Of a stretch of 64,000 nt of DNA, positions 1 through 64,000 are shown piece by piece (within the stretch, counting starts at the first letter, position 1; each line of letters starts with the position of its first letter). This DNA is from Deuterostichococcus epilithicus. Its lineage: Eukaryota; Chlorophyta; Trebouxiophyceae; Prasiolales; Stichococcaceae. The translations under genes were made by a program, and so were the position numbers. Location of the stretch: contig JAVTLE010000005.1 of NCBI GenBank assembly GCA_033439295.1, positions 496,001 to 560,000 of the forward strand. Direction: 5' to 3'. Below the pieces are notes generated by a model. The model was not told the DNA's origin. It searched no databases and saw only the letters and a list, made by a program, of their open reading frames with translations.

Positions 1-3000
1 GCGCCGCCAACCGATGGAACCGGCCTGCAGCGTGACACGACCTTGCGCCGCTCGCGCAGAGCATGCTTCATCTAGATCACCTGGACGTCCTTTGTCGCTC
101 TGTACAGGCTGCGCGTCAGCTCGCTGCTGCGCAGCCGCTGCAGCGTGCGGTCCCCGGTCGCCGGCCTCTCCGCTGCCGCCCGCTCCTGATGGAAATGCAC
201 ACAGGAAAGAGTTGGGCATCCGGGAAGGGTTCATGTCATCAGGGGATGGTCACAAGTTGTCCTCTTCAGAAGTGCCTGAGGGCCCCATCTGATCGACATC
301 CTGCAGCTTCAGGTCATGCCGGACGGCCAACAAGCGCCAGCGGGCAGGGCGCCACTGCCCTACAGGGTTCAAGGGCGCCACAGACCTTGTGCTCCAGGAC
401 CTCCCGCCTCGCCAGCGCCTACTGGAGCGCCGCCTGCACGGCGGCGGGCTCCCGCGCCACGTCCAGCCGCCGCAGCTGCAGCTGCCGCAGAGCCTGCTGC
501 AGTGGCTCCGTCGCCTCCGCCATGGAGCGCGGATTCACTGCTGCCTGCAGGTTTGCCAGTGGTCAATGCCAGGCACTGCAGGAATGTGAGGTCTCAGGCT
601 CTCCTGCCGCTGCCTCTGTAGCAGCCACGACGGCTGTGGGCGCTGCAGCTGCCGTCGCCTGGTTGGGCTGCCTCCTTGGTCGCGGTTGGCCCCGCTTTCC
701 CCCTCTTGCGGGACGTGTGCTGGGATGCGGTTTCGGGCAGGGTGTGCGGGGTATGGGGAAGCACACCACGACAGATCGAGCAGTCCGGGAGGCAGTGCCA
801 TGGCACATGCTGCCAGGAGCGCTCGCCTTGGTGTCCAGGTCGCTGTCGATGTCTGCTTCCAGCTGCCGCACGGCACCTCGGCCGCAGCCGCCTCCCGCCC
901 AGCGCGCCCCAGCGCCGCCTCACCTGCGGCCGTGTCGGCCTGCAGCTGCTCCGCCTGCCGCTCGAGCTGCTGCGACCACACATCCAGCATTCAATAGTGT
1001 TGGCTTGCGGAACTGGCATCGTCGTGTTGCAGCCGCCGTGTCGACCTGCAGCTGCCAGCCCGCCACTCGAGCTCCTGCGACATCCGACGTTCGCTCGAAC
1101 TGGACAGTGGGTGAGGAGTTTATAACGTGAAGGATTACCGTCTATGGCCTTCGCATACCAGGTGCTGCCGCGGGGGCCAAGCCAGATCAAGCATTCACAT
1201 CATGCACTAGCTGACATGTCGGCACCACTGGCAGCAGTTGACATCTGCGGCGGCGGCTCACCTTCAGCTCGTTCACGACGGCCGCTTGCCGCGCAGCGTG
1301 GCTGCCCTGCAGCGCCTCGGCCGCCACGAGCGCGTCCGCCAGCCTGCCGTCGGCTCGCACCAGCTCCCGCCGCTGTGCCGCCGTCTCCCGGTCCAGTCGC
1401 TGGATCTCTACCTCCTCTGCCTACAGCCTGCGTACGACAAGTGTGGGAGACGGATGTGCTTGTGTGCATGGGGTTCAGGCCTGGGAGAAGATTTGTCCAA
1501 AGACTCCGCTGGCTGGCACTACCACTCCGCCGTCGCTCCACATAGCATGTGCTCGTTGGACTCGGGCCCTGTCTTGCAAGCGCATGAGACAGCTGGCTGG
1601 TGGCAGCCGGTGCGGCGGCGGAACCCCCTCTGCCTCTGACATGCCTGGCGATGCCCATGCCGCATATCGGCAGCTGGATTGGAGGTGGGTGCAGCTAGAG
1701 TGCACCACTCAAAGTGGCACTGGAGTCAAGCTGCATAGCTGCACAAGGCATGCGGATCACGCATCCTTGCATGTCGAACGCACCCTTTGTCGAGTCGGGC
1801 GCGCTTGACGGTGAGGACCGTAGTCTGCCGCAGTCTCAGCGCCGCTGCCTCCTCCAATGCCCCCGCTTCGGCCTGCAATCGGAACAGACACCTGACGAGC
1901 GCCGCACGGCTGCACGCCAGCAATTGCTGAATGCATCAGACTGTAGCTCTGCTGCTAGGAGCCCATCGTCAACCACCGAGTGCAATGCGGACCCGCTGCA
2001 TTGGCGGGCCAGCGCCCGGCATGGCCGCCAATGCCCGACATGCATGCAGCTGTCCTCTCAGCAGCTGTCCAGAGGCTGGCCGCCATGCATCCCACATGCT
2101 GTCTGCAGAGTGTGTACACCTGCATCGCCGCTAGCGCCGCCTGGCGGGCGGCCCACACCCGCTGCAGGCGGCCAGAGTCTGCTCGTGTGTCCGCTAGCTG
2201 CGCGTTCGCCTCCAGAATGAGCGCCGTCAGCAGGCCTGCAGGTTTAATAGGTGGTGATCAGGCGCAATGAACTCTGTGCATCAACATCTGCCAGCTGCGC
2301 CTCCGCCTTTCCCTGCGAGCGCCTTTAATGGGCCTGCGCCGCCACGAGGGGCCGAACTGTGGTGGCGAGCAGATCGCATCTCTGGTGTCTGCTAGCTCAT
2401 CGTGAACAGGTTGCTTCGATGTCTGGACCTCGACACCACTGTTGAGGAATGCAGTCTCGGGCTCCGAAGGGGAGGGGCGGAGGAGGGGGGCTGGGGTGGC
2501 GGTCTGCAGACATGGCTACCGTGCGGCATGAAGCAAGGCGCACCGGTGTCTTCACCCTTGCCCAGGTCGGCCATCAGCTTTTCAAAGCGCCGATTCAGCG
2601 CATCCACCTGCGGAAGTTGGTTCGCAAATCCCATCACGGGGTGCACAGTCCTGCAGATCAATCGAACCCGAAGGCACGACGCTGCAGGATTCAATCAACT
2701 CCAGTAAACAGACAGCGCGCACCTGACAGCAACCCTAGTGCTTCCGCATTTTCGGGAAGGAACCGCCATCGTCGGACACATGCCATCCAGCTTATCACGG
2801 ATGCTCAAACTGGACTTGCGCCACCTGCCGCAGCGCGCGCTCGACGGCGGCGTTGGCGCACGCTACCTCGTTCGTCAGGCCCCGGACCTCCGCATCTGCT
2901 GACGCCAGCTGGCGATCCAGGTCTGCCCGCTCCTCCTCCAGGCGAGCGGCTTGCGCCTGCACATTGCATGGTAGTGATAGTCGAGCACAATCGTCAGGCT

Positions 3001-7811: not shown

Positions 7812-9474
7812 TCACAACGAGTCGATGAAATTCTGCACGATCGTCAGCCCGTTGCTGGTGATGATACTCTCCGGATGGAACTGCACGCCCTGCGATCATC
7901 ATGCGAGAGAATGGGTCATGCATGAGATCAGGAGCATGCATGCCCTCGAGCGGAGCCCATGGCCGTACACAAGTAGTGCTGCCGTCTTCAGTGCACGCTC
8001 CGCCTGCAAGGAGGTGGCCGCAGGGCGATGATAAGCAACAGGACATGCGAACAAACAGTGTGCCGGTCGGGGTACGGGAAAACGATTGCTTGTGAAAATC
8101 TAGTGACTTGCGCCTCGGACTGCGGCACTCAAGGCTTGGCTGACGTCAAGTCTTGCCCTGTCTAGCTAGTGAACACGGTTGTCCTCGTCAACAGCGCTTC
8201 TCTGTCTGTCTGATTGCAGTGTTCTCGTCTGCAGCATGGCACCCTTTCAGGCGGACCTGCGCAGCTCGCTGACAGGGCATGCAGGGCTTGCAGAGCGTCT
8301 GTCTCACAAGTTCTCACCTGGATGTGGGGTAGGCGGCGATGGCGGACGGCCATGATGGTGCCGTCTTCGGTACGCGCCGTGACCTCCAGCTCTGACTCCG
8401 GGAACCCGGCCTGGTCGATCACCAGGCTGTGGTACCTCGCCGCCTGAAAGGGACTCTCCAGCCCCTGCGCCGTCAAGGCGAATTTGTAGTCCGTCGCGTG
8501 TGCCACGCCTTGGGGTGCCGCCCCTTGGAAGCGAGCGCCAACCGCTCACCAACTCGCACAGCCTGCCAAGCTGCAAGTTCTCGGGCTAGCCGCGCGAGCG
8601 AACGGGCGGCTGCAGCTGTCGTGCCATCGCTACAGTGGAAACACAACGAGCGGCCGGAGCGAACCAAACAAAACCCTAAACCCTACCTGCAGCAGGCCGG
8701 TGCCGTCGTGGTAGACGAGGGACACCTTGCCGTGCATGACGCCGCAGGGCGCCCGCACCACGGTGCCGCCGAACACCTGCCCGATGCACTGGTGCCCCAT
8801 GCACACGCCCATCAGCGGCAGCTCTGGCCCCAGCTCCTGCGCCAGAATCAGTCAATGGCATTGTTTCAACAATCTGGTGCAGATGAGGCCAGCAGCCGCC
8901 ATGTGAAGCAGTGCGCAATCAACTGCAGCGCTCAGTGCCCGTGCAGAACGTTGGGCAAACATCGGCGAGTCAATCGCGTGATCTGGTCCGGCACCGCTGT
9001 GCATTGCTAAATTGGCGTACAGACATGCAGGATGGTGTAAGACCGCACCTGGATTATCTGCAACGAGATACCCGAATCCTCTGGCCGGCCTGCGGATGCA
9101 GATAGTTGATCCTGAGCAGGCTTGCTTCCCAGAACTCCTTGTAAACATATGGCGGCACACCAGTGGCGGCGGCATGCGTGCAGATTGTGTCTCGGCATGC
9201 ACCTGACACACGCACCTGGCCCGGGCGACACCAGAATGCCCCGCGGGTTCATCCTCCGGATCTCGTCCACTGTCTTTTCGTCGTTCTTAAGTACGACGTG
9301 CTCGCAGCCAAGGTCCCCCAAGTATTGAGACAGGTTGTAGGTGAAGCTGTCATAGTTGTCCACAACCACAACGGGGCCGTCCCTGCCGTTGGCGGCGGCG
9401 GCTGCTGCCGTGAACCGGCAGCGGGAGCGGCGGGCCTGCCAATGTCTGTGCCTCCTGCTGTGGCTCTGCCGCAT
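7812..9474 (-). CDS. ASB1: Anthranilate synthase beta subunit (glutamine amidotransferase)
   Basis: Five exons join in phase on the minus strand: 9474-9216, 9089-9049, 8836-8687, 8464-8318 and 7889-7812, giving about 224 residues. The protein releases ammonia from glutamine for the alpha subunit, which converts chorismate to anthranilate in tryptophan synthesis; in algae and plants this happens in the plastid. Class I amidotransferase marks are VVVVDNYDSFTYNL near the start, the oxyanion motif VSPGPG split by intron 1, the nucleophile Cys in GVCMGHQC, and the catalytic His-Glu pair in GVQFHPES. The roughly 30 basic, Ser/Arg/Ala-rich residues before the domain fit a transit peptide. The start is uncertain: an upstream in-frame Met at 9534 would add 20 residues. 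Intron 3 begins with a telomere-like GTAGGGTTTAGGG. Confidence 0.92.
8669..8687. repeat. Telomere-type motif inside an intron
   Basis: Two units of CCCTAAA at about 8672-8685 abut the donor of the third intron of the anthranilate synthase gene. TTTAGGG is the telomere repeat of plants and of Chlorella. A second short interstitial copy lies near 62572. Confidence 0.5.
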
Positions 9475-14040: not shown

Positions 14041-14274
14041 ACGGCGTGCCATAGAGCCGGGCAGTCGGTTTTAAAACGCCGACGCTTGCGGCACGGCGCG
14101 CAGTGGTTCCAGAGAGCCAGGCAGGCAGCATCAGCAGCACCAGTACGTTGTTTCGAGCCGCACAGCAGCGAGCATCGAGCAGTGGGGCACGAGGCATCGG
14201 CCGGAGACGCGGGACGCCCGGCTCACAGCCCTGGCATCGCCGCAGCCTCGGTGGCGCCGGCTGCCGCGTCCGCC

Positions 14275-17696: not shown

Positions 17697-20600
17697 ATGG
17701 CAAGCTGGGGCTCCGCCCTGCCCCAGCTGGGCGGCCGCGCGCAAGTGCTTGCAGCGCAGCGCGACTCACTCGCACACAGGCCAGCCCGTCACTGCGGCTC
17801 GCTGCCCGCCCGCCGACATGGCGCGCTGCGGGTGGTGGCTGTGGCCAGCCGGCCGCAGGCGCGGGTCGTCGCAGCGCCGCCCAGTAAGGAAACCCTGGAG
17901 CAGACGTCTCAGGCACCGCAGACGAAGCAGCCCGGCAAGGACGTCACGGGGCCCGTCATCCTCAACGGCCAGGTCCGCTTGCTGCAGTGCTGACAGGCTA
18001 ACAACTGCCGCAAGGGGATGCGGATGTTGCATAATTCTCCTGAGTATGCTGGCTCTCCGGTGGTGAAACCTCATCGCTGCTTCAAAGCTGAGCCAAGGGT
18101 TTCAGAGGTCCAAACCTTGGGAGCCGTGCCATGAACTTGGTCTTGCATGCCGAATATAAGCACACCGCTACCTCACAGTCGTAGGAGCCCGCGCCGGCTC
18201 TCCTAGTGCGTTATGTTGCGATCCTGCAGCCCTCACAACATTGCTGTTGGCTGTGTGACACTGCTGTGTGACAACACCGCAGACTCTACATCCCTGAACG
18301 CCAACCAGCTGGAGCTGATCAGCAACGTTGCGGCCCCTCAGCCCTTGCACCGCGGCATGACACTTCTGTCTGACACCTGCAGACGCTGCACTCGCTGAGC
18401 GCCAACCGGCTGGAGCTGATCAACAGCATCTCTGACTACGTGGAGGAGCGCGTGCTGCCGGTGCTCAAGCCCGTGTCAAAGTGCTGGCAGCCGTACGACA
18501 TGCTGCCCAAGCCCGAGGACCCCGACTTTGTCGACCAGGTGTGCTCCTCCCCCTCAACGCTTTCATACAGTCCACCGTGTGTGTAGGACCTGGGAGATGA
18601 TCCGCCTGCTCTGTCGGCATCCCGCGGTGGCGACTTGCACTAGGCTCCAGACATGCTGAGGTCCACTGGATCGGCGTCCGTGCGAGGACATATACGCATG
18701 CACGAACAAGCACATGCGGCCTGTGTGCAGCTCGTGGCGGTTCCTAGCATTTTGTGACCTTACGCCTCTTCCTCCTGTGCCCGCAGGTGCGGGCACTGCG
18801 GTCGTGGTTGGAGGGTCTTCCGGACGTTCTTCTGTTCACTGAATCTCGTCTGTTGTCCGCCTGCTGATAACCTGTCAGCTTTCAACACAGGTGCGGGCGC
18901 TGCGGGAGCGCACAAAGGAGCTGCCGGATGACTATTGGGTGGTCCTGGTGGGCGACCTCATCACGGAGGAGGCGCTGCCAACCTACATGGCCATGCTCAA
19001 CACCCTGGACGGCGTGCGCGACGAGACGGTGCGCTGCTTCCTGAGTCCGGCCATGCAGTCGCTGTCTCGCCTATGCATGCAATGTGCGGATCGTTTGGCA
19101 GTGGTGACTGCGCCACGCGCGGCTGACCACTAGCCAAGGGGCTCGGGACTGAGGATGGCAGGGCAGGGCTGTCCTGAGCGGCACCGGCGGCAGGGCATGT
19201 GAGCTGCACCAGTGGCTTGCGGCGCGCTTCTCTCATGGGGGTGTGCCTTCCTGCACGAGGCTGACTGTATGCTGCGCTCGTGTGCAGGGCGCCTCGCCTT
19301 CAGCGTGGGGCCGCTGGACGCGGCAGTGGACGGCTGAGGAGAATCGCCACGGCGACGCCATGAACAAGTACATGTACATGAGCGGCCGCGTCAACATGAA
19401 GGTGTATCCTAACTGCTTGCCGTCCCAACGACCGGCCGTCCTCGACATTCGTTGCTGTTCACCAGGCTGCCTCACAGATGACAGATCCACTCACCCGGGC
19501 GTGCGGCGGGTGGTGTCAAAGGGGCTGCATGGCACTAGGCCCTAGTCCAGCTGTAGCTTATTTTCTCTGTGAGCTCGGATGCTCAAATGCCTGAACGTCT
19601 CTTCCGCTCCACACAGGCGATCGAGGTGACCATCCAGAACCTGATCGGCAGCGGCATGGACCCCAAGACCGAGAACAACCCGTACCTGGGCTTCATCTAC
19701 ACCTCCTTCCAGGTGCAGCCCCAGTCGAGCTCTAAGGCAATCCAGGAGCAAGTGCCGCAGGCGCTGTTAGGCAGTGCCTAAAGGCAGCGGCTGGACCTTT
19801 GCTTGCATGGCTGCAGGCCTGCCAGCAGGACCGGCTGGCAATCGCACTCTGCAGCACGGAATGTGGACAGCTTCTTGGGACGCTTTTGGTCTGCATGACA
19901 AGCCTGAACTGGCGCCTCGTGCCCCTCGCCATAGGAGCGCGCCACCAAGATCAGCCACGGCAACACGGCGCGCCATGCCAAGGAGCTGGGCGACCCGATG
20001 CTGGCGACGCTGTGCGGTGCCGTTGCCTCGGACGAGGGCCGCCACGAGATCGCCTACCAGCGCATCGTGCAGAGGTTCTTCGAGCTGTGCGTCCCTCCCC
20101 ACATCAACCCCGCAATGAGCTTCCTATCAAGAGGCACTTGTGATGCAGCAGCTTGCAAGGTGCCCCGGGCACGAGCCGATGCGACCCCTAGCTCTGCATG
20201 CAGGCGCAGAGGTCAACCCCTTTTCAGCCACGCTCGACCCTGAGCTTGAGTGGCACCGCTGTCACACTGTCTTCCAATCTCTACAGGGACCCGAGCGGCA
20301 CGATGATGGCGTTTGAGGAGATGATGCGCAAGCAGATCGTCATGCCGGCGCACCTCATGGACGACGAGGAGCACAAGGCCAAGACCGGCCGCAACCTGTT
20401 TGCCGACTTCTCCGCCGTTGCCCAGGTGCGGCAGGATGTGCTGGATAACTGGAGCTGCCGGTATTGCGTCCTCTCTGCTTAGCGCCAGCAGTTCGGGGTG
20501 CCGGCAGATGATCTTGCTGTTGATCGTGAGGGTGACATCGGCTTGGCGCCAGCAGTTCGGGGCGCCGGCAGATGATCTTGCTGATGATCGTGAGGGTGAC

Positions 20601-22210: not shown

Positions 22211-24025
22211 ATGCCGTTGTTTGGCAAGAAATTGGCACCACAGGCAATGCCCAGGGGTCCGCCCGTGAACGCCGACCACCAGCAGCTCCAACAGGTCAGT
22301 CGGTGCCACCCATCGCAGTATTGCTTTTACATGTGCAAAGCACAATTGGCCCCAATCGAACCAGCTTTTGGTTCTCAGATGTGTCTGCCACTCAGATTGT
22401 GGTCAGATGTGGCGCACCTGCAGCTCCCTGCTGCCGCTTTTTGGTCCTGCCCATGGCCGGCTGCGGGTCTGAAGCCCAGTCGTGTGGCAGCCGCTTCCCA
22501 CCCACTTGCGGCACGGCCTCTAGTAAACTCCTGCATGCTGTTCCCCGCAGTGGTTCAAAGCCATCGACAGGGACAACAATGGCACATTGGACTCTTCGGA
22601 GCTGCAACGTGCGCTGGCGCTCGGGAATCTGCATTTCTCGCTGCAGGCAGTGGCGCATATGATCAGGTGGGGTAACTGCAGCACTTTCTTTCTCTCTTGG
22701 GTCCCAACTGCATGAGGGCGACTCCAGTCGGGGGCGCGGATCGCTCAGCGCTTCCTGCCGCTGCGGCGTACAGCATTCGCCCGCATTGGGCTTGCTCCCC
22801 TCATTCGCCTGATGTCTCCGCGCACAGGATGCACGACACCAAAAGGGATGGCACAGTAAACTTCATGGAATTCGAAAAGCTTCACAATTTCCTCATATCT
22901 ATGCAGGTGCGCTGCCCCACTGTCGACCGAAACGACTCGAACCATTTCCGTTCGAATGTTCGATTTGAATCCTACTGCTGGCAGATGGTTGACACTTCGT
23001 TTTTTGATGTGCAGACGTCCTTTGTACACTATGACCAGGACAAGTCGGGCGAGCTCGACATGAGCGAGGTGCAGTCGGCGCTGTCGTTTGCAGGTGGGTC
23101 CGCCTCTTGGCTTGAGGGCTCGCTTTGACATCCACAACTCGAGGACCAAGACTCTCCGCCTGGCCGGTTCGCCGGGTGCGTGCTGCACGAGCTGGATGTC
23201 AGGCTTGCGGGACGGGTGCGCCGCGCCGCCAAGCGGTATGCCGCAAGCTGCGGGTTGCATCGAGCTGGCACCGCTGGCACGACGCATTGTGCGGCATGAC
23301 TGTGCTTGCCGACGTCAGCAGGGCACCGGCGCCATCATGCCAGCAGCTAGTTTGACAGCTGAGCAGAGGATGCATTGCGTGCAGACTTGCGGTTGGACGA
23401 GCCGGCCTTCATGGCACAGACAGAACCACTGACTTAATTGTAAATGCGCAATGCAGGGTTCAGGCTGGACCAGCCGGCTTTCGAACAGCTCTACAAGGTC
23501 AGAATGCGTCCTTCGCAGCCGAATGCGCATTCCTGTGTTCCTGCGCTGACGGCAGAAATTCGAAACAAGAGAACTCAGAGCAGACGGCTGGTTTCACTGC
23601 CCATTCACACATTGAGCCGCCGTCGCCTGTCGTGCAGGCGTTTGATCCTGACAGGTCGAACAGCCTGTGCCTGCCGGAGTACATCGGGCTCACGCTCTTC
23701 CTGCAGTCGGCTACCGCCACTTTTACCGCCTTTGATACATCACGCACCGGGCGCATCACTCTGGACTTCAACCAGTGGTGGGTTTCAAAAACGAAAAATC
23801 AAGTATTGAAAACCACAAAAACACAGAAAACAAACTTTTATAATTATTTAAATTAATTTTTTAAATTCCAAACTTTCATTTCCATCATACCGAGAGAAAA
23901 ACAAAATTTCTATGCAGCTTAGTGAGCGCATGTCAGCTGCTGGCAGCACAGCAACACGACAGGAGGCTGATGCGTCTGCTCCTCAACGACCTTGCAGGAT
24001 CTATGCGGCGGCCAACGTGTTGTAG
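22211..24025 (+). CDS. Penta-EF-hand calcium-binding protein (ALG-2/PDCD6-like)
   Basis: Seven exons join in phase: 22211-22294, 22551-22666, 22828-22906, 23015-23093, 23457-23497, 23638-23777 and 23998-24025 (188 residues). Five EF-hand loops are visible: DRDNNGTLDSSE, DTKRDGTVNFME, DQDKSGELDMSE, DPDRSNSLCLPE and the degenerate DTSRTGRITLDF. The order and the C-terminal FNQWIYAAAN element match plant PEF proteins. In this family EF5 mediates dimerisation, and the proteins act as Ca-dependent adaptors at membranes and in cell-death or repair responses; the partner here is unknown. The N-terminal extension is short compared with animal and plant relatives. Intron 4 contains an exon-5-like copy and intron 6 is strikingly AT-rich. 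Confidence 0.9.
23372..23497 (+). repeat. Tandem copy of EF-hand gene exon 5
   Basis: At 23375-23410 a copy (TTGCGGTTGGACGAGCCGG, then CCTTC, CACAG) precedes the true exon 5 (AGGCTGGACCAGCCGGCTTTC) by about 83 bp. The copy stays open and would read LRLDEPAFMAQ against FRLDQPAFEQLYK, so it could in principle serve as an alternative exon. Confidence 0.75.
23778..23997 (+). other. AT-rich intron island
   Basis: Intron 6 of the EF-hand gene, especially 23786-23915, is dominated by A and T, with runs such as TTATAATTATTTAAATTAATTTTTTAAATT. Other introns in the window are GC-rich. It may be an insertion, for example of organelle DNA or a degraded element; no coding or terminal repeats were seen. 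Confidence 0.6.
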
Positions 24026-24790: not shown

Positions 24791-27084
24791 TCAGGTGAAG
24801 TGCGTCTGCAGCGCTCTGCCGTCCACGACCTGTGCAGGCGGGGCGACACAGGCTAGGTCAGCAGACTGAGGATCTCGAGTGGCATCGCCAGCCAACCTGC
24901 ACCTGTGGCTGTCCTGTAGTTCCCATTCGCATGCAGGCGCAGCGCCAAGCGACCAAACGGGAACAGGCGATGCACACAGGCCGACAGAGTCGTCCACACG
25001 GGTTGTGACTGCAATCGATGGTTTGAAGATCTCACAGAAGGTAACGAAGGTTGACAGAAAAGCAAGGCAGGCGCGCACCAGGCGGCCGTCAACTGACTGG
25101 TGAGGGCGAGGGTTCTCGCTTGTGAAACTGCCGCCGAGTGTTGGGATTCATAAGACACAGGGATGCGCACCAGGCGGCCGTCGTCAGACTGGTAGAGGGC
25201 GAGGGTGGAGACGCCGGCAGCAAGGCCCGCCTCCGCCACGAAGCCGCCAGTTGCCTCCAGCACATACATGCGCTGGACGAGCACACACACAAGTTGACTC
25301 AGTGTTGACCCAGCGTTGGCGCGCCCGTCACAATTCGGACTTCGAGTTTTTCAACAGGCAGTGCCCAATCCTTCAGATGACGGGCTGTTCCCTGATGATG
25401 CACCAGCACATAGACGGCCAGCCGCCTGGAGGCTGGTCCTGCTCAGATGCGTCACAGCTCTGCTGCATGCCAAGTTGGTTCCACTGAAGCTGCGCACCGT
25501 GGCGTGGTTGGGCCAGCAATTGTAGTGGAACGTCCAGGCGCGGCCTGCGGCGCACACCAAGCGCCAGGTCAGGCCTGAGTAGGAGGTTGAACCAGGCAGA
25601 CTGCATGGTCAGAAAGCACTCGCAGCAGCAGCCTCCCCTTTCCTTGCCATTTGGGCCTTGAGCGCTAAGGTAGCATATATGGCAGACCTCACACCGCCTG
25701 CTAGCCAACCCAGTGCAAGACACAGACACAGGGAGCCAGCGCAAGTCTATACCGCCGTTTGGCAACTATGCATTCGGCACCGCTGCCGGCATCCAGGGAG
25801 GGCAGGGCAGCGCCGTCGCCGCCGCAGGCGCCGCCGACATAAACCCTAGCAGCACAACAACGCAGGAATCCCCTTATTTGTCCGCACCTGTGGCGGCGTC
25901 CAGAAACGAAAGGTCGGTGCCCCCGCCGCCGTGGGAGCCGCCTCGGTGCGGCAGCTGTGGCAGGAAGGCCTCCGCAGCCGCGCGCGGCAGCACCACCCGA
26001 CCCAGGGGACCCACATCGCTCGCTGACAGCCGCTTCTGGAACAGGAACCTGATGAGTTGGCACATAGGTAGCGGCCTCGGCAACGCATTCGCCATCCATG
26101 TACGTGGCAGTCCCAACACCCGCACTCGCTGGCGTGTTGCAGGATGCCTCGCGATGAACATGAGGGCTGCTTGGTGCAAGGGAATGGGTGAGAGTGTTCT
26201 ACGGTGCTTACGCTGGCGAGGACAGGATGATGAAGCGGCATGCGGGAGCGGTCAGTGGTTCAGGGGTTGCGCTGAGCAACAACGCTCACCGGCAGCGGGC
26301 GGCGGCGCGGCCGCTGCCCTGCGGCCTGGGCAGCTGGAAACGCACATACGCCGGCGAATCCGTCAGCTCACCTGCTTAAGCAGCGCACCACAGTCGACGT
26401 CGGCCTCGGACGTGAGAAGGATCTCATCCTGATTCGTCGGTCGCAGGAGCAGAGGCATTGCGTCTCGGACATGGCACGCAGTTGAGAGAATTCGAGCCAA
26501 GGTTGGGCTCTGCACTTCGAGGGGGCCACATGCCGGCAGCCTGGGGCTGCTGGTCTGAGTTTGAATACGTTTGCAGTGCTCTGCAGAACAGAGGATTGCT
26601 GAACAGAAAGAGATCTATCTAAAGGCATGGCGCTCCACCGGTGCCAATGGCCTTCATGGTGAACGGCAGACCCGGCGCCTGCGGCAGCGGCTTGGCGGCG
26701 CGCTTGCCGGACAGGACGCCCGACGTCACAGCCGCCCCTGTCGACAGCCAGAGTCAGCGTCTCGTCCAGTCACTTGCGGCTGGCAAACCATACAGCCATG
26801 CGTATTGGCCACGCTGATGCACGAGATATTACTGGACATTCGGTGACGCGGCGCTCTTCACTCTGACTACGTACTGCCAAAGCCGAATTTTGTGCGCCAA
26901 TCGAGTGTTGTAACTGCAGCTGCTTTACGATGCCAAAACCGTGGAACGTTCATGATGATTATAGGCAGCAAAGCTCTGGCTGTATTCGACATGCAAGTAA
27001 ATATAGGATGTACCTTGTTCAGCCTGGGAGCGCTCGCGGATGCTGCTCGCCGCCTGCGACGCCACCACAGACTGCCGTCCCGCC

Positions 27085-42786: not shown

Positions 42787-45700
42787 GATATCAGCGCAGA
42801 CACGGCAGGCGTTGGCGTCACAGCCGGCGCTGCAGCTGGCGTCGGCTGCAGCCTCGGCGCTGCGGCAGGTGTTTGCCATCTGCTGCCACACAGTGGGTCC
42901 CTCCATCTGGGCTGCTGCTGATCGCGCTCGCGCCCGGCTGCGCCGCAGGCTGCGGGTGCCCGGCGGGATGGGAGCTGGGGATGCGGGGCCCGACGCCTGG
43001 GGAACCGCAGTATCGGCCCGCCGACCTGGTGGACTTCCTAGTGCACCGCAGCTTCCGCAGCTTCCAGCAGGTGCGTGCCCTCACTGTACATCTAGACTGC
43101 CCGTTGAGACTGCCGGCCACCAGCATGAGCATGCCGACTGGGGAAACTAGCGGGTGTGCAGACGCGGCGCCTCTTCGCAGGCTTTGAGGACACACCCACG
43201 CGTCTCCTGGTTGTGCCCTGGCAGGGCCTCTGGGGTTGCAGTCGATTCTCGATGTCGATTTTCGATTGTTGTCGAGGCTGTGTCAAGTTTGCAGTGAGCA
43301 AAACGGTGCGCCGCGCCACAGCATGGACCGCCTGCTGCAGGAAGCAACTGGGCTGGGTTCGTGCAGCAGACACGATGCAGCTGCCCATCGTGCTGGCTGC
43401 AGGGGGGGCTGACGCCGACGCGCAAGCTGCGGGTGGCCTACATGCTGCCGCACCACAACATCACGGGCGGCATGAAGTGCCTCGTGGAACACATCCGCCT
43501 GCTTCGCAGCCGCGGCCACACCACCATCGCCGTGCACAGGTGCTCGCGCCTCTGGACCTCGCCCCGGAACCCACTCCTTGCCCGAGCAGCTGGCAGGGCC
43601 GAGGGTTGTGCTGGCAGGCTTGTGCGGAGCTTCGCTTGCCTGAAGCCAGGGACAGCATCGAAGTTCCGCAGGTCAGCACGCCGGCGACGCCAGGGCGAAA
43701 ACTCTTGCCCCGAAAACGAGCCGTCCTGTGGGAGCCTCACAAAATCCAGGCTGCAGAGCGGGCAGCAGGGGGCCAGCAAGGTCCACAGTCCATTCCCCGG
43801 TATCGTTCCTGACACCAGACCGCCCAGTTGCGGCAGCCTCGAGCCGGCATCGCCACAGGCGGCCACGCTGCACTGCAGGTCGGACACCGCGGCGCGGGCC
43901 ATGCCGCCGTGGACCAACGAGGAGGCGGACGTGGACGTCGTGTGCCGCCTGCACCAGCGGCTGGCGGACGTGTACCCCGCCGCCGAGATTGACGTGTGCG
44001 TCGTCGGCATCTTCCACCAGGTGTGCTGCGCCGCGTTTGTGCCGCAGCGTCGCATCCCTGGCCTTGCACCTGCGTCGCAGCCGTCGCCGGATCTGTGTGC
44101 GTCGGTCGCGCCTGCACCTCCTCGGGTCACTCGCCTGAACTTTCCAGCTGTGTCCAGGTCCGTCTGGCATGTGCAGGCTCCAGCACTTGGTGCGCACACT
44201 GGACCCCCCAGCGCACTTCAAGCTCGCATATCCCCATTCGGTCCTGTTGCAAAGCGCAGGTGGCTGAGCTGCTCATGGGTGTCCCGGCGCCGGTCGTATA
44301 CTGGGAGCAGGGCCACGAGTGGGTGTTTGGCGACCCCATACGCTTCCAGGTGCCCGCCTCCCTTCTGATGCAGGAGTGCTCACAGTGTCGCGAGCAGCAG
44401 GTGACAGCAGCGTCAATTTCGCTGTGCATCGAGTTGGGAGCTGCCACGGCTGCCAGCAGCACAAACACGGCTTTGCAACAGTCGTGCGTCTGGTGGTGAA
44501 AGTCGCCGCATCGTTACGCGCTGGCACCAGCAAAGTGCAAGCTAGAGCTTCGGGATCTGCTGCAAAGACCCTGCAGTGGCAGTGCTCCTGTCTCACAATT
44601 GCAGGCCTGCCCCGCTCTCGTGCTGAACCGCTTTTCAGTCAACGGCGGGCTAAACCCTGACTCACTGGTCTGACATGCAATTGCAGGAGGCGCACAACTA
44701 CAAGAAGCAGGATCAGTTGTTCCACATGGTCATGCACCTGCCCTGCGCGCTTGCCGCCGTCAGCGAGGCCGTCCAGGTGAGCCGACAACCCTTGCTGGTC
44801 CGTCTGCAACAAGCGGCTTAGCGCCGTTCCAAGCAGCTGCTTATGTGAGCTTGTGACCGAGCCTGTGAAGGAATTGCACCCGCCCTGTGCGCTGGCCGTC
44901 GTCAGCGAGGCCTGCCTGGTGGTTACGACTGCTTGTCAGTCTGTAATAAAGCGTATGAACTTGAGCAAGGACTGTCACGCAAGCTGCGGAGATGGTCGAC
45001 CGGTGCAACAACTTCGCAGCCTCTTCAGGCTTCGGGAGCACAGAACTGTGGCATATATGCTGCAGTGATGCAACAGAGCGATGACACCAAGCTCTCTGGA
45101 ATGCAGACGATACTGGGGACAGAGTTTGGGCGGCAGCCGCTGATCATCCCCAATGGCATCGACTGCCACCGCTTCACGCCGGGGCCGCGGTCACATATTC
45201 CCCCCACCGCAACCATGCTGTGTGTGCCTGGCGGCCAGGTGCAGCGATTCGTTCTTCGGCAAGCCTCACTCTCTTGCACGTTCGGTTCCAGAACAGCCGG
45301 CCAGGACCAGGCAGGGCCTGCGTTCTGTGAAGGCTGCGTTGCCACTGCGCGCCCGTCGCACCGCCCAAGGCTGCAGCCACAGCCAAATACCATTGTCGTA
45401 CATGACCTGTCACACCCGCCGAACTGGGACGGCGACAAGTCGGTGCTGCTGGTCCGCGTTCGGACGTTTTCATGTTTGCCTCAGCTGACAGTGAAGATTC
45501 ATTCACCTAAGGTGTTTGCACAGGGCTTGCCGCCGCCGCCGAAGCGGGAGGGCGAGAAGTCGGTGCTGCTGGTGGGCAACCCGGCGCTGCCTCTCAAGGG
45601 CTTTGATGTGGCGCTGGCCGCGCTGGCCGCCGTGCACCGCGTGCTGCCCATTCGGGTGGGACAATCTGTTCCACACTGTGTAGCAGGCACAGTGCTCCTG

Positions 45701-47363
45701 CACCGTCCTTGTGGAACTGGCACTAGGCTGGCGTTTCACATTTGAATGGTGTTTGGATGAAGGCTGTTGCCTGGCTCGTCCATGGCACCTTCCCCACTTG
45801 CCCCTGTCTGGCTGCACTCTCAAACATTGTATCGTGAGCGTATCCTGAGCCGGATGACAGGTCGTCACTGTGCTGCGTAGGTGACCTGGGTGTGCCAGTC
45901 AGTGCCGTCGGCGGCGCATCTGCCTGTTCTGCCTGCCTGCGGCCTCACCCTGGACCTGCATGTCAGCCCTCCACAGGTGGGTCCTCGACCGGGGTGTGTC
46001 TCGACGCTTCTCCTGCACCAGGTTCAGAGGAGCCATGAGCCATGCATTTGCTGTCTCTTCCGCCCGAAACATTCTTCAGGGTGGTGACCTGGCGCGTGCA
46101 GTCCCCGCCTGTCTCGTCCCAGCTCACGTCCAGCCCATCTCTCCTGCTTGTTGTCATGGCATTTGCTCTGTGGGCGCTTGGTGCACAAACACTTTGGTTT
46201 CTGAGGTGTGCAGGACGACCTTGCAGCATTGTACCGCGGCCACGACGCGATGCTGTTCACCAGCCGCTATGAGGCTTGGGGCATGCCGGGTGAGTCGTGC
46301 TCGAGCCGCACTCGTGTCCTCAGCGGCTGCCGAAAGCTGCGAGCTTGCGGCGGGGAGCTACCTGGGACTCCAAAGAACTGCCGTGCAGCGCATGTCCGCT
46401 CCTTACACCAAGGTTGTGGTCGCCTGTCCCTTTCCACGCTTAGTCGAACACGTTGAACTCCCAGGCCACGAGGAACATGAAGCCATACATACATACCAAA
46501 CATCCGTGCTGGTTGCCGTGCCTGCAGTCATGGAGGCGATGGCCTCCGGGCTGGCGGTCGTCGCCACACGCTGCCTGGGCGTCGCCACCTTTGCGCAGCA
46601 CGCCCAAAATTGCTTGCTGGCCGACACACAGGCGCATTCCGCCCTTCGGCCGCAGTGCTAGCGATGGTCGCATCATTGCATCCTCGGCATATGTGAGCAT
46701 GCCCACGCATCAGTGACACTCAAAGGCGCTTGCTGGTCAAGCGGCGGAGGGCGACCCCAGCAGTGAGCCAGGCTCTGTCCAGCCACAGCACGCCGGCCTC
46801 ACTCTGCGCCAGCCCCTTATGTGAACAGCACGTGTGAACGACTGCTGCGCCGGCCCACCCCGCAGGACGTGCTGGGGCTGGCGCAGGCGCTGCTGCGGGT
46901 GCTGACGGACGAGAAGCTGCGGGCGCGGCTGGCGCTGGCGGCGCGGCACACCGCGCTGCGCTTCACGCCCGAGGCCATCACTGACAGGTGTGTGTGCATG
47001 CATGTGCGAGGAGGCCCGCCGGCGCACCTCCCCTGTGTAACCCAGAGTCTGTACCCGTCATCTGTACCCGTCCGCTGATGCCATTGCGTGGCGGTGCTCG
47101 GCGCCTGTGTGATGCGTCTGGTCCGTCCGAGTTGTGTCCGAACTGGTAGCGGCAGCGCACAGCCTGTGCTCTGGACATGAGTCGCTCCTACGGGCGCATC
47201 ACGGGCGCAGGCTGGAGGCGGTGCTGTACAGCCTGACGGCGGTGTCGTCGGAGGTGCTGGCGCTTCGCCACCCGGCGCTGGGGCCGCTGCAGCTGGCTGC
47301 GTCCTGGGCCTCCACCGCCTGCGCCAAGCCGCCACCGCAGCCTGGACAGCAGCCTGGGCAAGC

Positions 47364-47419
<56 letters not shown>

Positions 47420-47924: not shown

Positions 47925-48600
47925 CCCAGCGCCACTTCCTGGTCGACGTGCTGCTGCTTATCTGAGACGCACGGAACCGGGATAAGGGCTGGATGGCAGG
48001 TGTAGAACGTATGCCTCGCGGCTGCTGATGGCCTCATAATCAGCTTCTGATAACACCGCAAGCTGAATTTGTTTGTCAAGTGAATGGTCTTGTGCTTATT
48101 GACATGTGTTTGTGCCGCTAGTCTCTGCATGCTTTCGATTTGGGGTGCCACCTCGCTGTTGACATTCTTCTGCTCATGTGCGCAAGGTAACAAGTCAGGT
48201 TTGACATCAGCAACGAACACCAGTGAAACAAGCAGCTCCAGCCATGCAGAGGTCTGCATGTGGTTCGCCGCCATTCGAATATCGTTGCTCCAGGTAGCTC
48301 TGATCCTGAGCACAAGAGCACCTCTTCGGCCCAACGTTCACGTAAAAAGCCACGTGGTGCATAATGTACACGTGCACTGTGCAGTTTCTCAGTCCATCAG
48401 CCTGCTGCTGCTGAGCCTGTATAAACGGCAATGCTGTGCGCTGCCGCGGCCGCTGCCCGCCTTGACGTCCACCAACAATCGCCTTCAATCCCACCCGACC
48501 CGATCAGTCGCTTGTGCTGGCGTGTCGCCGCACCGCACAGCACACTTGTGCAGAACAGCAATTTTCTCCCCCGCATTCAGCAGCCGCCGCTGCTGCCGCC
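47925..48600. other. Convergent intergenic region
   Basis: Between the glycosyltransferase stop and the MPO1-like gene. No gene is recognised. At about 48205-48245 there is a weak resemblance to the start of the MPO1-like last exon (AACGAACA, AGCAGCTCCAGCCA). Confidence 0.4.
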
Positions 48601-48770
48601 AGGACGGCCCCAGAGTCTGCCTAGCTGTTGGCCGCCGCAGCCGCGTCGTCCAGGGTAGCCCCAGGCTTCGCCTCGGCTGTTGGCGCTGCTGCTGTGGGGC
48701 CGGTGAGCCACCCCAGACTCTGTCTAGCCGTCGGCAGCCGCCGCCGCGTCCGGTACGCCGCCGTCGCGCT
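48600..48770 (-). repeat. Tandem copy of the MPO1-like gene's coding end
   Basis: The last codons and stop of the MPO1-like gene (plus-strand CCCAGACTCTGTCTAGCCGTCGGC, then GCCGCGTCCGGTA, at 48711-48755) recur at about 48608-48655 as CCCAGAGTCTGCCTAGCTGTTGGC, then GCGTCGTCCAGGGTA. The offset is about 103 bp. The stop-spanning CTAG is kept in both. Confidence 0.85.
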
Positions 48771-58159: not shown

Positions 58160-61100
58160 ATGCGAGTCCGAATTGCCTGCCTGGTGTTGCTGGTCGCTGC
58201 GGCGTCATGTGCCACTCTGCCTGAGAACCTGCACCTCACCGCCGAGGCGCCCCTTTTGGAGGTGGCCGCTGCACAGGTTGGTGCATGTCTTTTCGGGTGC
58301 TTCTTGCGAGCCCATGCATCTCAGTGGCAATCGTATGTTTTGCAGATGTATAGCATACAAGTGACTTCGCACACTGCAGGCCAACCCTGCGGAGGCCTTC
58401 ATGTTATGGACGGCAAAGCACGACAAGTCATACAAGACGGTGAGTCTTACTTACTTGCTTTTCGATACTTCTGCTGCTATGCTTGTCTCCTTGTGGGCTC
58501 TTGTGCTGTGCTATAGCCTGCCGCCGAGTGCGAAGTCCAGCTGCATCGTTGCAAGTATGAGCATTTCTGGGTGTCGATGAACAGGTGGAGGAGGGCGCGC
58601 ACCGCCAGCGCGTCTTCAGCAGCAACGTCGACATGATTGCGGCGCACAACGCTGGCCCGTCCAGCTTCAAGGCAGGCCTTCAGCATTTGCCAGATGCCAG
58701 CTGATTACGCTTGCTTGCGGGGCCACACATCGCCACCACTCCACGTGCAACATGAACACGGAGTCAGACACATGCACGCATGCAGGAGCTGTCAGACTGA
58801 TTGGGTGAACATATCTGATGCAACGTGCAGATGGCGCTGAACGAATTTGCGGACCTCACACGGGAGGAGTTTGCCGCGACGCACTTGGGCATGAACCCCG
58901 CCAAGCCCGGCACCCTGCGCGAGCGGTCCGCAGGTCCGTTCCTGCTGGTAGATCTGATCCTGTAGGATCCGACAAACTGAAAGAAACACCCTGTCAACCA
59001 GTGGGCATTCCTGCTCCATACGCGATTGCGGGAGCTTCGGACCACACGGCGCCACACTTGCATGTCACTGTGCACATCCAGCCGGTCCTCCCATGGCACA
59101 CAAGCGATGCGACTGCAGTGGACGGTGTTGACGTTGCAGGCGCGACCTTCAGCCATGCCAACATCACGCATACCCCTGACCACATTGACTGGGTCAAGGA
59201 CGGCGCCGTCACCCCCGTCAAAAACCAGGCCATGTGCGGCTCCTGCTGGGCCTTCAGCACCACTGGTGCGCGCTCGGAAAACGGGTTTTCCCAGGCGACT
59301 TATTACATCCTGCCACCTCTCGTCATATGCGCAGGACCTCCCGCACCTTCCTGAGCTTTGGAACAGCGAATGGAACACGCGGCCATGCTCTGTCACACAG
59401 CTTCAACCGTGCAGGCGCACCAATCTGAGACGCAGCAGCTCACCCTGGCGGCCTTGGTCACCACTCAGCACGATGCTGTTTTTGACATTCCACCCCTTCT
59501 GTTCACGGCACAGGCTCCATTGAGGGCATCAACGCTATCAAGACGGGCAAGCTGGTGTCTCTCAGCGAGCAGGAGCTGGTGGACTGCGACACATCCAAGG
59601 ACCAGGTGTGCCGCGGCAGATTGTAGGGTTTTGCCTGCAGGGGAGTATTGGTGGACCGCGCCCGTGACTAAACCTCGTTGCAAACCTTGCCAAATCAACA
59701 GCCAGTGTCGTGCGACACGCTGCCTTTGAGAAACACTTTTAACCTTGCCTGAAACCGCTCGATGACTTGCATTGGCGCACGGCTGCACCACCTGTCTCAT
59801 GGACTTTGCATTTCAGCCTGTGGTGGACATCGGCTGAGTCCCTCACGGCATTGTTTGTCCGTGTCGCAGGGCTGCTCAGGCGGGCTGATGGACTTTGCCT
59901 TCCAGTTCGTGGTGGACATCGGTGGCCTGGACACCGAGCGTGACTATGCCTACTGGGGCGTCGACGGCACCTGCGACGAGCTGAAGGAGAAGAGGTGCCC
60001 AGTTCACTTCGTGCAGCTCGTGACTCTGCCCAGGCGGCCTGGAGGACAGGGGGATGCAGTGGTGACCGGGTGTCTCTAGCAAGTACGCAATTGACGCTGC
60101 ACCTGCTGCAGAGGCCTTCCTCGTTGTGAGGGCTGCGCTCACAGCTGCAGCTGGAGCCTTCCCAGAGGTGCATTTGCCCTGGCTCGCCTTTCAAGAGCTC
60201 TTCACAGTCTGGCAGCGGCCCAGACGCGCGGCTTGGCATGGTTGCAGGAAGACGGTGTCGATCGACGGCTTCGAGGACGTGCCGAAGAGCGACGAGGGCG
60301 CGCTGCGCAAGGCGGTCAGCCAGCAGCCGGTGTCCGTCGCCATCTGCGCCTCGCAGCTGCAATTTTACTTCAACGGTCAGTGCCTTTTTGCGACTTAATG
60401 TCCCTAGCCCACCTCGCATTCAGTCATCTGACACAAGACAGAGTGCTGCCAACCTGGTCGCGCCTGTGCTGCCATGGCAGAAGCCTTGCACTTTCCACGA
60501 TGCAGGCATCGTGGATTCGTGCTGTAAGGAGCTGGACCATGGCGTGCTGGCGGTCGGCTACGGCTCCGAAGGCGGCAACCCATACTGGCTCGTCAAGAAC
60601 TCCTGGGGCAGTGCCTGGGGCGAGCAGGTGGGTTCTCCATTGAATATGCACATGAAACCCTCAAGCCCCCTCGTGTTGTGCATGGCTGTTCCTCGTCTCA
60701 GCGCTTTCAGTGGCACATCTGCACAGTCCTCTTTGTACTCGACCACCAGCTGCCTGCACCTGCACCTGACCCCCTCAACCGGCTGAGTTTGCTGCGCAGG
60801 GCTACTTCCGCCTGAGCCGGGATGTCGCGGACCCGGACGGCACATGCGCGATCGCCACCACGGCCAGCTACCCCATCAAGACGTCGCCCAACCCGCCGCC
60901 GCCGCCACCCGTGCCGCAGACCTGCGACTGGTGCGCGCTTGTCATCATCCGGCTGCGGCATCGAATCTTGCATCCTTCTTGTCGTCGAGGCATGGACCAT
61001 AGAAGGCTGCAGCCTCTTGCCGCACACAGTCTATCTGCTGGGCTGTCGTGTCGTGGGGCAGATCAACGCTTCTGTACGCCGCACAGGTTCGGCCTGAAGG

Positions 61101-61887: not shown

Positions 61888-64000
61888 ATGTTGAAACGGG
61901 TGCGTTTGCGGTGCTGCCTGAGGCGCTTGCAAGTCTTTGAGGCCATTTAAGAACACCGTGCTGCCTTCGCAAGCTACCTACAGGGATAGCGAAGAATCGA
62001 TGGGACCACACGACGCAGGCCACTCGGCAGCTGTGTGCGGCCGCGGCTGGTGCGCTGGCGGCGGATGCCCGCACGGCTGTACTGTTGCAGGGGCGACGCT
62101 GCCTCAACAGTGCGGCGGCCAATCCAGAGGGGCCGCCGGCGTTTGTATTCGACATCGACGGCGTGCTGATCCGCGGCGGCACAGTGCTGCCCGCCGCTCG
62201 GCGTGCGCTTGCAAAACTTTACACGCCTGGCGGTGAGCAATGCTCGCTGCAACATTCTATCAGCCTTTCCTGATTCACCTTCCATAAGGTTTCAGCTGTT
62301 GGGTCGATAATATAACAAGGGTTTGTTCAGCACATTGTGAGTGGAGAATGATGAGCATGTGTTGAAGGTCGGATAGTTTGAGCACTCACACACACTACAC
62401 GCAGGCGAGTCACCGCGTTTGCCGGTGTGCTTCCTCACGAACGGCGGCGGCGTCACGGAGGCGGCCAAGGCAGAGGAGCTGAGCAGTTGGCTGGACGTGC
62501 AGGTGCACGAGAATCAGGTGGGAGGCTTTGACAGCACACGCCGCATCGAAGCGGACAGAGTTGACGGTCCTTGGGTTTAGGGTTTACGTTTAAAGCCTTG
62601 GCGGAAACATCCTCATGCTCGGCACGAAGCGCGGCATCGGCAGCACAGTCTGATTGCATCCTATGGCATTACACCTCCCTGCCTTTCTCTGCGACTCGAG
62701 GCTCGTGCGGCTGTGAGCACATGTCGCAGATCGGCAGGCTTCGCATGGTGCCAGCCGGTCGCTCCGCAGCGCGACCGCATGGTTCTGGAATCCTGCACAC
62801 CGCACACGAGCGGCGTCCAAGATCAAAGCTTGTGCCCACACTGCACAGGTGGTGCTGGCGCACACGCCCCTGCGGCGGCTGGCCACGGGTACGCTCCTGC
62901 GCGACAAGCCGGTGCTGGTGGCGGGGGTGGGGCAGCCGGCGGACGTTGCGGCGCACTACGGCTTCCGCCAGGTGCTGACGCTGCCGCAGCTGCACGCGGC
63001 GCAGCCGCACTCCGCGCCCTTCGCGGCACACACAGGTGCGGGCGGTGTCTGGACCCTGTGTCGATCATCTCACGAGCTACCATGAGACTCGTTGCACATG
63101 CAGCTAGCTGAACGCGGCGCAGCCGCACTCGGTGCCCTTTTACGCCACCTGTAGGTGAAGTGACTATCCAGCATTCGTATCAACAACGCTGCATAAGACT
63201 CCACACCTGCCAGCCAGCTGCCAGCAGCGCAGTTGCACTCGGCCCTTTTGCGGCATACACAGCTGTGTGCTCTCCTTGGGTGTCCGAGCAATGAAGATCT
63301 GCCATGAGACCCTCTACACAATGCACCCACCTGCATGCCGCACAGCCGTACTCCGTGCTTCTCGCGGCGCACACAATTGATCCGTGTGTGTGTTGCCCGT
63401 GGTTCAGCGCTCTGCCACCAGCGTCGTTGGCCCTGCGCAGCAATCTGCTGCGTTTGCAGTGTCAAAGTGCGGATGCGAGTGCAAATGCAAATACAAATTC
63501 AAAATGCACATGCACATGCACTTGCACGGACATGCCCAGTGCTGGAGGCGCTGCAGCGTGGCAGGCCACTGCTGGGCAGGCGCCACCCTGCAGCGCCAAC
63601 GCAATTTCCGACCACATCGCGTTTCATCCTCCCTTGCTTCGTCCAAGTCAAGTCACTGCTTTTGCATCCGATCACCGTCCATTTCAACGTGCAGATGCCG
63701 CGGAGCCAGCGGCAGGCGGCATGGGCAGCGAGGGCAACCCCATAGCGGCCGTGCTGGTGTTTAAGGACCCGCCAGACTGGTACAGAGACCTCCAGCTCGT
63801 CCTGGACGTGCTGACCTCAGGTAGATACATGCCCGGGTGTTCTTGCGGCCCACTGAGCAGCCGTTGTTGCCGGTTAGGAGACGCCAAGAGTCACTGGTGG
63901 CATGCCACGCAGGTGGCGTGCCGGGGCGGGTTCCGCCAGACGGCGCGCCGCCTGTATCCTTGTTCATCTCGAACCCGGACATGCTCTGGGCGAACGAGTA
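61888..64000 (+). CDS. HDHD5: HDHD5/CECR5-like HAD hydrolase, 3' end outside the window
   Basis: Exons: a possible leader at 61888-61932, ~61990-62232, 62405-62517, 62849-63035, 63695-63820 and 63913 onward, open to base 64000. The HAD nucleophile motif is FVFDIDGVLIRGG. Motif II is CFLTNGGGVTEAAKA. The next exon (VVLAHTPLRRL, PVLVAGVG) and NPIAAVLVFKDPPDWYRDLQ, then SLFISNPDMLWANE, match the CECR5/HDHD5 class IIA HAD family, which is mitochondrial in animals. The substrate is unknown. The segment before the HAD motif (AAAAGALAADARTAVLLQGR) is helical and Ala/Arg-rich and could be an organelle presequence. The exact start and first splice are unresolved. Intron 3 contains a multi-copy array of the exon 3 end, and intron 2 a telomere-type motif. 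Confidence 0.85.
62568..62586. repeat. Telomere-type motif inside an intron
   Basis: GGGTTTAGGGTTTA, two TTTAGGG-phase units, lies in intron 2 of the HDHD5-like gene. Confidence 0.45.
62985..63375 (+). repeat. Four-copy array of HDHD5 exon 3 end
   Basis: The exon 3 end (GCAGCCGCACTC, GCCC, CGCGGCACACACAG at about 62988-63035) recurs at about 63100-63150, 63211-63263 and 63322-63375, a period of about 110 bp. Intervening sequence also matches between units (GGTGTC, then CCATGAGAC, then GCACATGCA / CACAATGCA). Only the first copy is followed by a splice donor in frame. Confidence 0.85.

What the first reader, a model, noticed from the sequence alone, without database searches (positions are those of the whole stretch)
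928..63375. Widespread junction-straddling tandem duplications (exon-edge echoes)
At least eleven places in this 64-kb window carry a degenerate copy of an exon edge together with its splice site and intron flank, almost always 65-145 bp from the real edge and in the same orientation. Copies lie upstream of acceptors (coiled-coil gene, desaturase exons 2 and 3, EF-hand exon 5, SKIP16 exon 4, glycosyltransferase exon 8, protease exon 7) or downstream of donors or stops (B3 exon, glycosyltransferase exon 6, MPO1 end, HDHD5 exon 3). They differ in sequence from gene to gene, so they are not one transposon family. The common theme is local tandem duplication of ~100-bp segments that span a splice junction, after which the outer copy decays. 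This would lengthen introns without damaging the message, and the related tandem-duplication model can create introns at AGGT sites. Such a frequency in one window is unexpected to me.
Basis: partly seen in the sequence, partly recalled or inferred. Interest (0 to 1): 0.85.

Follow-up and report, generated by a model that had tools for sequence, protein, structure and literature searches.

The report
Decayed exon-edge copies inside introns
In the sampled parts of this intron-rich genome about one intron in ten holds a worn copy of the edge of the neighbouring exon, splice site included, about 115 bases from the real edge, which points to a recurring local copying process that lengthens introns without harming the protein.

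Summary
All eleven places hold the stated copy, and the window is not special. In 314 kb (window plus 25 ten-kb stretches from 16 contigs), 44 of 422 introns carry a same-strand copy of an adjacent exon edge: 49 of 844 edges, against about 2.3 expected from swapped introns and 3 inverted. Offsets cluster at 80-150 bp (37 of 49). Echo-bearing introns are longer by about one unit. Copies decay near-neutrally.

Eight of 34 clean pairs share 25 bp or more of intron flank. In 24 of 34 homology stops within 13 bp of the splice site, and none takes in more than 68 bp of exon. Simulated full-unit duplication at 20% divergence predicts 15%, and 41% with over 70 bp. Purely intronic pairs are too few (4 against 13.8). 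Intron gain at AGGT, a transposon family, exon duplication and inverted templating are not supported. Best reading: short-range, break-repair-type duplication, kept only where splicing hides it, with an unexplained focus on exon ends. Exon edges rest on my own gene models.

The parts
926..1081 (-). coiled-coil gene: acceptor edge 926-976 and its upstream copy 1032-1081 (offset 106)
   Evidence: exon part 86% over 43 bp; 7 bp of intron matched; no Pfam family for the protein
18256..18425 (+). acyl-ACP desaturase exon 2 acceptor edge 18358-18425 and copy 18256-18324 (offset 101)
   Evidence: exon part 86%, 25 bp of intron also matched; PF03405 and 1AFR
18784..18928 (+). desaturase exon 3 acceptor edge 18888-18928 and copy 18784-18824 (offset 104)
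   Evidence: both begin CAG|GTGCGGGC; 68% over 38 bp of exon; intron side not alike
23380..23482 (+). EF-hand gene acceptor edge 23452-23482 and copy 23380-23410 (offset 72); weakest case
   Evidence: EF-hand Pfam hits
25073..25206 (-). B3 gene, exon edge 25165-25206 and copy 25073-25113 (offset 92)
   Evidence: 93% over 41 bp
25774..25942 (-). B3 gene donor edge 25881-25942 and copy 25774-25835 (offset 107)
   Evidence: B3 PF02362
36634..36993 (-). F-box/ApaG (SKIP16-like) gene: three-copy array around intron 36675-36895 (spacings 129, 119)
   Evidence: F-box and DUF525
44733..44949 (+). glycosyltransferase donor edge 44733-44812 and copy 44875-44949 (offset 142)
   Evidence: exon part 84%; intron side also alike (z 3.4)
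45400..45573 (+). glycosyltransferase acceptor edge 45520-45573 and copy 45400-45453 (offset 120)
   Evidence: 80% over 50 bp of exon; intron side not alike; copy lacks AG
   Evidence: no Pfam hit for the 46-aa piece; counted as a plus-strand acceptor echo with 13 bp of exon
59773..59922 (+). papain-family protease acceptor edge 59862-59922 and copy 59773-59833 (offset 89)
   Evidence: PF00112; spliced protein aligns to 1s4v
62982..63358 (+). HAD-family (HDHD5-like) exon donor edge and three downstream copies (spacings 118, 110, 113)
   Evidence: Hydrolase_6

Best explanation
A recurrent, short-range, same-strand DNA duplication process adds blocks of about 90-146 bp to introns. Each visible block carries a copy of the last or first 13-68 bp of the neighbouring exon with its splice site. 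Only duplications that splicing can hide survive (the inner site keeps being used), and the outer copy then mutates freely. SHOWN: local source, same strand, offset band, excess over controls, about equal numbers at donors and acceptors, longer introns, near-neutral decay, intron flank shared in a minority. INFERRED: that the events are break-repair tandem duplications (fill-in of staggered breaks, then joining, sometimes with filler), and that the filter is selection through splicing. NOT EXPLAINED by this alone: why the copied part so often ends at the splice site and is capped near 68 bp of exon. Selection against blocks that carry more of the exon's splicing signals, or breakage specific to exon ends, are the two ways I can see.
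For: Offset peak, direct only. 25 donor and 24 acceptor edges of 422 each, against 0.5 and 1.8 swapped and 1 and 2 inverted. Echo introns longer by about one offset. Pairs with shared intron flank: L022:9140-9469 (d 133, 87% over 197 bp), L024:3772-4030 (d 101, 150 bp aligned), and arrays with similar spacing. Intron positions +6 to +20 still match at 0.373 against 0.265 baseline. Exon part and spacer lengths are negatively correlated (r -0.43, p 0.011, 34 pairs pre-selected for offset 75-160). Differences by codon position 16/22/23% in 27 pairs; nonsynonymous 131 against 137 expected; splice dinucleotide kept in 21 of 33, about the 0.8 x 0.8 of chance; offset modulo 3 is 16/12/10 for residues 1/2/0. 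Donors with an echo are stronger (median 6.45 vs 5.46, p 0.015); acceptors are not (4.95 vs 5.74, p 0.46).
Against: Simulated full-unit duplication at 20% divergence predicts 15% stopping within 13 bp of the junction and 41% with more than 70 bp of exon; observed 24 of 34 and 0 of 34. Intron-side similarity z 1.34 where 4.40 is expected, mixture fit 27%; far half of the spacer z 0.42. Intron-intron pairs 4 against 13.8. Few pairs above 92% identity. Stops in the copies 0 against 3.85 and synonymous changes 48 against 35, a weak hint of coding constraint, though real-exon drift also adds synonymous changes.
Confidence: 0.55

Rival explanations
1. Exon-end-specific copying: a process copies only the terminal exon stretch plus about 5 bp past the splice site and inserts it, with unrelated filler, about 115 bp away. 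Breaks at exon borders (for example at the edge of an exon-bound nucleosome or of an RNA-DNA hybrid in the intron) repaired with templated filler could do this.
For: Windows that yield echoes start almost only at -60 to -12 of the exon at both ends; from -72 outwards none at donors and one intron at acceptors. Pairs at 84-91% exon identity without detectable intron homology: L025 d116, L015 d125, L021 d126, L003 d105, L014 d124. In most pairs that keep intron homology it decays about as expected from drift on both sides, so introns are not simply faster.
Against: 8 of 34 pairs share 25 bp or more of intron, and a few intron windows do yield hits (0-2 introns per bin). Part of the step at +6/-6 is expected under any model, because the real splice consensus is constrained and the intron beyond it is not. 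Exon part and spacer are negatively correlated. No excess of inverted copies. No mechanism demonstrated.
Confidence: 0.25
2. The copies are kept by selection as decoy or alternative splice sites with enhancer-like exon sequence, and the duplications are much older than they look.
For: The kept stretch (up to 68 bp of exon end plus the splice consensus) matches the zone of exonic splice control: PMC4476162 treats the terminal 69 bp as the exon end (passages seen). 0 stops against 3.85 expected.
Against: Splice dinucleotides kept in 21 of 33 copies, no better than drift; the copy's site scores as high as the real one in only 1 of 15 donors and 5 of 18 acceptors. Codon positions 2 and 3 differ alike. 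Offset modulo 3 is not biased.
Confidence: 0.1
3. Intron gain by tandem duplication of an AGGT-bearing exon segment.
For: Some pairs carry AG|GT in both copies (18784 / 18888).
Against: Donor and acceptor regions of the same intron should then be alike at offset = intron length: 1 of 426 introns at score 10 or more against 0.4 permuted, 5 against 1.8 at 8 or more. Offsets are shorter than the introns in nearly all of 35 pairs.
Confidence: 0.02
4. A transposon or introner family, or an assembly or composition artefact.
For: High G+C and simple repeats produce some self-matches.
Against: Simple repeats were masked in the offset scans; swapped, inverted and distant-offset controls are near zero. 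Three echo-bearing stretches show no second copy of the echo elsewhere in the genome (best candidates only). Spacers are no more alike than controls. Copies 10-30% diverged are not assembly duplication; collapse of young identical copies could hide recent ones.
Confidence: 0.03

Closest known systems
Small tandem duplications from fill-in and joining of staggered double-strand breaks
   Same: Local, same-strand, short. PMC8355091 calls them the commonest short (under 100 bp) insertions in the human genome and links them to breaks from nearby nicks (abstract and introduction read; a term search in it found nothing).
   Different: Here the visible copies sit at exon ends, mostly stop at the splice site, have offsets mostly of 80-150 bp and are rarely above 92% identical; purely intronic ones are scarce.
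Intron gain by tandem genomic duplication (AGGT model)
   Same: A tandem duplication involving exon sequence and splice-like sites is hidden by splicing (PMC3443670: passages read; PMC4974935: search listing only).
   Different: No new intron is made; existing introns are longer; donor and acceptor are not copies of each other.
Tandem exon duplication with alternative splicing
   Same: A second copy of exon sequence lies in the neighbouring intron (family features recalled).
   Different: Only one exon end (at most 68 bp in 34 pairs) is copied, codon positions 2 and 3 differ alike, and the offset is not biased to multiples of three.
Decoy intronic splice sites
   Same: An intronic stretch with a splice-site-like end; PMC2082412 (start of abstract in listing) reports a 100-nt intronic element with a decoy 3' splice site.
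   Different: No sign that the copies' splice sites are conserved.

Membership tests
Small tandem duplication | direct orientation, close by | tested here: met
   direct only
Small tandem duplication | whole unit of length equal to the offset is homologous | tested here: inconclusive
   25 bp or more of intron shared in 8 of 34; 24 of 34 stop within 13 bp of the junction
Small tandem duplication | also found where no exon is involved, in proportion | tested here: not met
   intron-intron 4 observed against 13.8 expected among 51 pairs at offset 80-150; partly a matter of lower detection
AGGT intron gain | donor and acceptor regions are copies at offset = intron length | tested here: not met
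   1 of 426 against 0.4 permuted
Introner or transposon family | sequence shared between introns | tested here: not met
   three stretches searched genome-wide; spacers compared with each other
Tandem exon duplication | whole exon copied, reading frame under constraint | tested here: not met
   0 stops against 3.85 is the one hint the other way
Decoy splice site | splice site conserved | tested here: not met
   21 of 33 dinucleotides kept
Decoy splice site | splice site bound or used | not testable with these tools
   needs RNA data
Polymerase-theta-type templated insertion | copies in both orientations (recalled) | tested here: not met
   inverted 3 of 844 edges, the chance level

The most novel reading that the evidence does not exclude
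This genome has, or had, a copying process aimed at exon borders. It repeatedly pasted the terminal 20-68 bp of an exon, with its splice site, about 115 bp into the adjacent intron, equally at donors and acceptors. About a tenth of introns still show it, and older, unreadable rounds may account for much of intron length. The caps (about half a nucleosome of exon, at most about one nucleosome of offset) would point to exon-bound nucleosomes or RNA-DNA hybrids as what sets the breakpoints.
Probability: 0.25. Interest if true: 0.87.

Novelty: new variant of a known kind. Interest (0 to 1): 0.64.

Why it matters
How introns grow in compact genomes without transposons is an open question. Here is a countable trace: roughly one intron in ten in the sample is longer by one block that carries the neighbour's exon edge. 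If the focus on exon ends survives RNA-supported annotation, it would tie intron growth to breakage or chromatin at exon borders. If it does not, it becomes a clean example of survivorship: the duplications left to see are those that splicing hides and whose source the protein preserves. Either way it supplies a test that can be run on any intron-rich genome.

Tried and rejected
Simple repeats and composition as cause (masked; few matches at other offsets). Inverted copies (chance level). Intron gain at AGGT. Shared spacer motif or family. Coding or alternative-exon constraint. Biased substitution: changes are spread over bases, transitions 125, transversions 109, G+C 0.70 to 0.69. Full-unit homology of the intron side as a general rule. 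Dating by paralogues: the desaturase matched only itself and the protease had distant matches on C5, C11, C12 and C14, but their surroundings could not be fetched. The first gene-finder run merged everything and was discarded; the second was used. One search timed out and was repeated more efficiently.

Rows dropped: one search used 367 of 410 introns (90-450 bp); one search used 422 of 426 (60-1200 bp). One search kept 38 pairs with offset 75-160. One search dropped 4 of these, whose alignments ran into themselves or past the exon (they showed 98, 110, 131 and 141 bp of 'exon part'; one is L024:3772-4030, which I read as a true tandem unit with about 54 bp of exon); over all 38, 26 stop within 13 bp of the junction and 9 run 25 bp or more into the intron. 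One search has its own 34, after requiring offset 80-150, 12 aligned exon bases and a 20-bp spacer. rest on 27 pairs. Searches used 304 kb, before the last 10 kb was fetched.
Full report
What was checked. The window is C5:496001-560000 of a 46.8-Mb genome in 21 contigs, G+C about 61%. I fetched 250 kb more as 25 stretches from 16 contigs, C5 among them and, lacking annotation, trained a small gene finder (first run discarded; second used). Its window proteins are credible. The desaturase gives Pfam FA_desaturase_2 at 7.7e-132 and aligns to 1AFR over residues 1-290 of 292 with one 5-residue gap; the protease gives Peptidase_C1 at 2e-76 and aligns to 1s4v. HAD hydrolase, group 1 glycosyltransferase, EF-hand, F-box/ApaG and B3 domains are also found; the coiled-coil protein and a 46-aa MPO1-like piece hit no family. 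These two aligned proteins are complete without the outer copies. Median exon about 119 bp, median intron about 227 bp.

Is the pattern real? Yes. In 304 kb, with simple repeats masked, same-strand self-matches of score 17 or more number 50 at offsets 90-149 and 22 over the thousand offsets 500-1499; inverted matches at 90-149 number 2. That is 44 of 422 introns, and 37 of 49 offsets lie in 80-150, with 8 below and 4 above. The window (14 of 182 edges) is like the rest (35 of 662).

What the copies look like. In 34 clean pairs (of 38, see dropped rows) the exon part is 13-68 bp (mean 46), the spacer 36 bp or more (mean 70), the offset 116 +/- 18. A position map over the introns shows that 24-bp windows yielding echoes start almost only between -60 and -12 of the exon end, at donors and acceptors alike. 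From -72 outwards there are none at donors and one intron at acceptors; intron windows give 0-2 introns per bin, more at acceptors than at donors. In 27 pairs the exon part of the copy differs from the exon by about 20%, codon positions 16/22/23%. Nonsynonymous changes are 131 against 137 expected, synonymous 48 against 35, stops 0 against 3.85; in the two other frames stops are 3 and 2 against about 4 each. The copy's GT or AG survives in 21 of 33. So the copies look like drifting sequence, not maintained splice sites; the missing stops and the synonymous surplus are weak hints of coding constraint, the latter also expected from drift in the real exon. Several genes have arrays of three or four copies at similar spacing.

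They go with added length. Echo introns (offset 80-150) have median 358 bp against 224 without echo; subtracting the offset gives 248, not different from the rest (p 0.12), whereas unsubtracted they exceed echo-free introns of 150 bp or more (median 237) with p 3e-9. Part of this may be that longer introns offer more room. Genome-wide searches with three echo-bearing stretches found each itself and, for two, the adjacent exon edge; the third had one short hit elsewhere, outside its copies; the tool scores best candidates only. Spacers are no more alike than controls.

Is it plain tandem duplication plus decay? For some pairs, yes. L022:9140-9469, window 18256-18425, 44733-44949, the 36.6-kb acceptor pair, L006 d130 and L024 d106 show intron-side homology by the z test, as does the unverified 48564-48750 pair. 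L024:3772-4030, L013:3218-3471 and the HDHD5-like array show it in the gapped alignments, although the last two fail the z test on the 30 bp next to the splice site. For most, no. At 20% divergence the donor-side simulation gives 15% of pairs ending within 13 bp of the junction and 41% reaching beyond 70 bp of exon; at 30% it gives 44% and 35%. The data give 24 of 34 and none of 34. Similarity next to the splice site is z 1.34 where 4.40 is expected, and a mixture fit puts about 27% in the fully homologous class; mean identity at +6 to +20 is 0.373 against a baseline of 0.265, while equal-rate decay at 20% would give about 0.5. Random placement of the 51 pairs at offset 80-150 would give 15.3 exon-intron and 13.8 intron-intron pairs; 35 and 4 were seen, with 6 intergenic against 11.5. 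Some of the intron-intron shortage is lower detection: at 20% divergence such a pair is found with probability 0.71 against 0.93 for a junction pair, at 25% with 0.29 against 0.78. Part of the step at the splice site is expected under any model, because the real splice consensus is constrained and the intron beyond it is not, but this does not reach the observed size.

How it probably works. The safest statement is a local duplication process acting at DNA level, of the kind described for staggered breaks that are filled in and joined (PMC8355091, abstract and introduction read), filtered by selection so that only splicing-compatible products persist, and read by us mostly through the part whose source the protein keeps unchanged. 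What this does not give is the cap near 68 bp of exon and the frequent stop at the splice site. Either blocks with more exon carry too many splicing signals and are purged (exon ends of 69 bp are the unit used in PMC4476162, passages seen), or breakage and copying are aimed at exon borders. The second is the bold reading. I give it about one in four.

What it is not. It is not intron gain at AGGT: donor-acceptor similarity at offset = intron length is 1 of 426 against 0.4. There is no sign of an introner or transposon family, of whole-exon duplication, or of templated insertion in both orientations.

Print. Eight full-text searches listed no paper that by its title or abstract start describes exon-edge copies at a fixed distance in introns. 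Several lists were capped (for example 12 of 7,963 and 10 of 1,159) and the library holds open-licence papers only, so this is weak evidence of novelty.

Limits. Gene models are ab initio; the sample is 0.7% of the genome; no relatives or RNA data could be used; young identical copies may have been collapsed in assembly; paralogue dating failed for lack of fetched sequence.

Noticed in passing
window 20474-20606: A young tandem duplication (unit 64 bp, 93-95% identical) lying wholly inside a desaturase intron, shorter than the 80-150 bp class.
   Followed up: partly
window 47361-47418 and 31665-31803: CAG/CTG-type repeats that, on the frames my gene finder chose, would encode glutamine-rich runs.
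   Followed up: no
window 63458-63526: A 69-bp stretch of the HDHD5-like intron has an 81% match on contig C7 (457321-457386), the only other genomic hit reported for that stretch.
   Followed up: no
whole 304 kb sample: Inverted matches of score 17 or more at distances 37-199 number 3, direct ones 73.
   Followed up: partly
window about 9216-9435, minus strand: A glutamine-amidotransferase-like exon (VVDNYDSFTYNL) resembling anthranilate synthase component II; name recalled, not searched.
   Followed up: no
echo-bearing donors, 314 kb sample: Real donors that have an echo score higher than other donors (median 6.45 vs 5.46, p 0.015); acceptors do not.
   Followed up: partly
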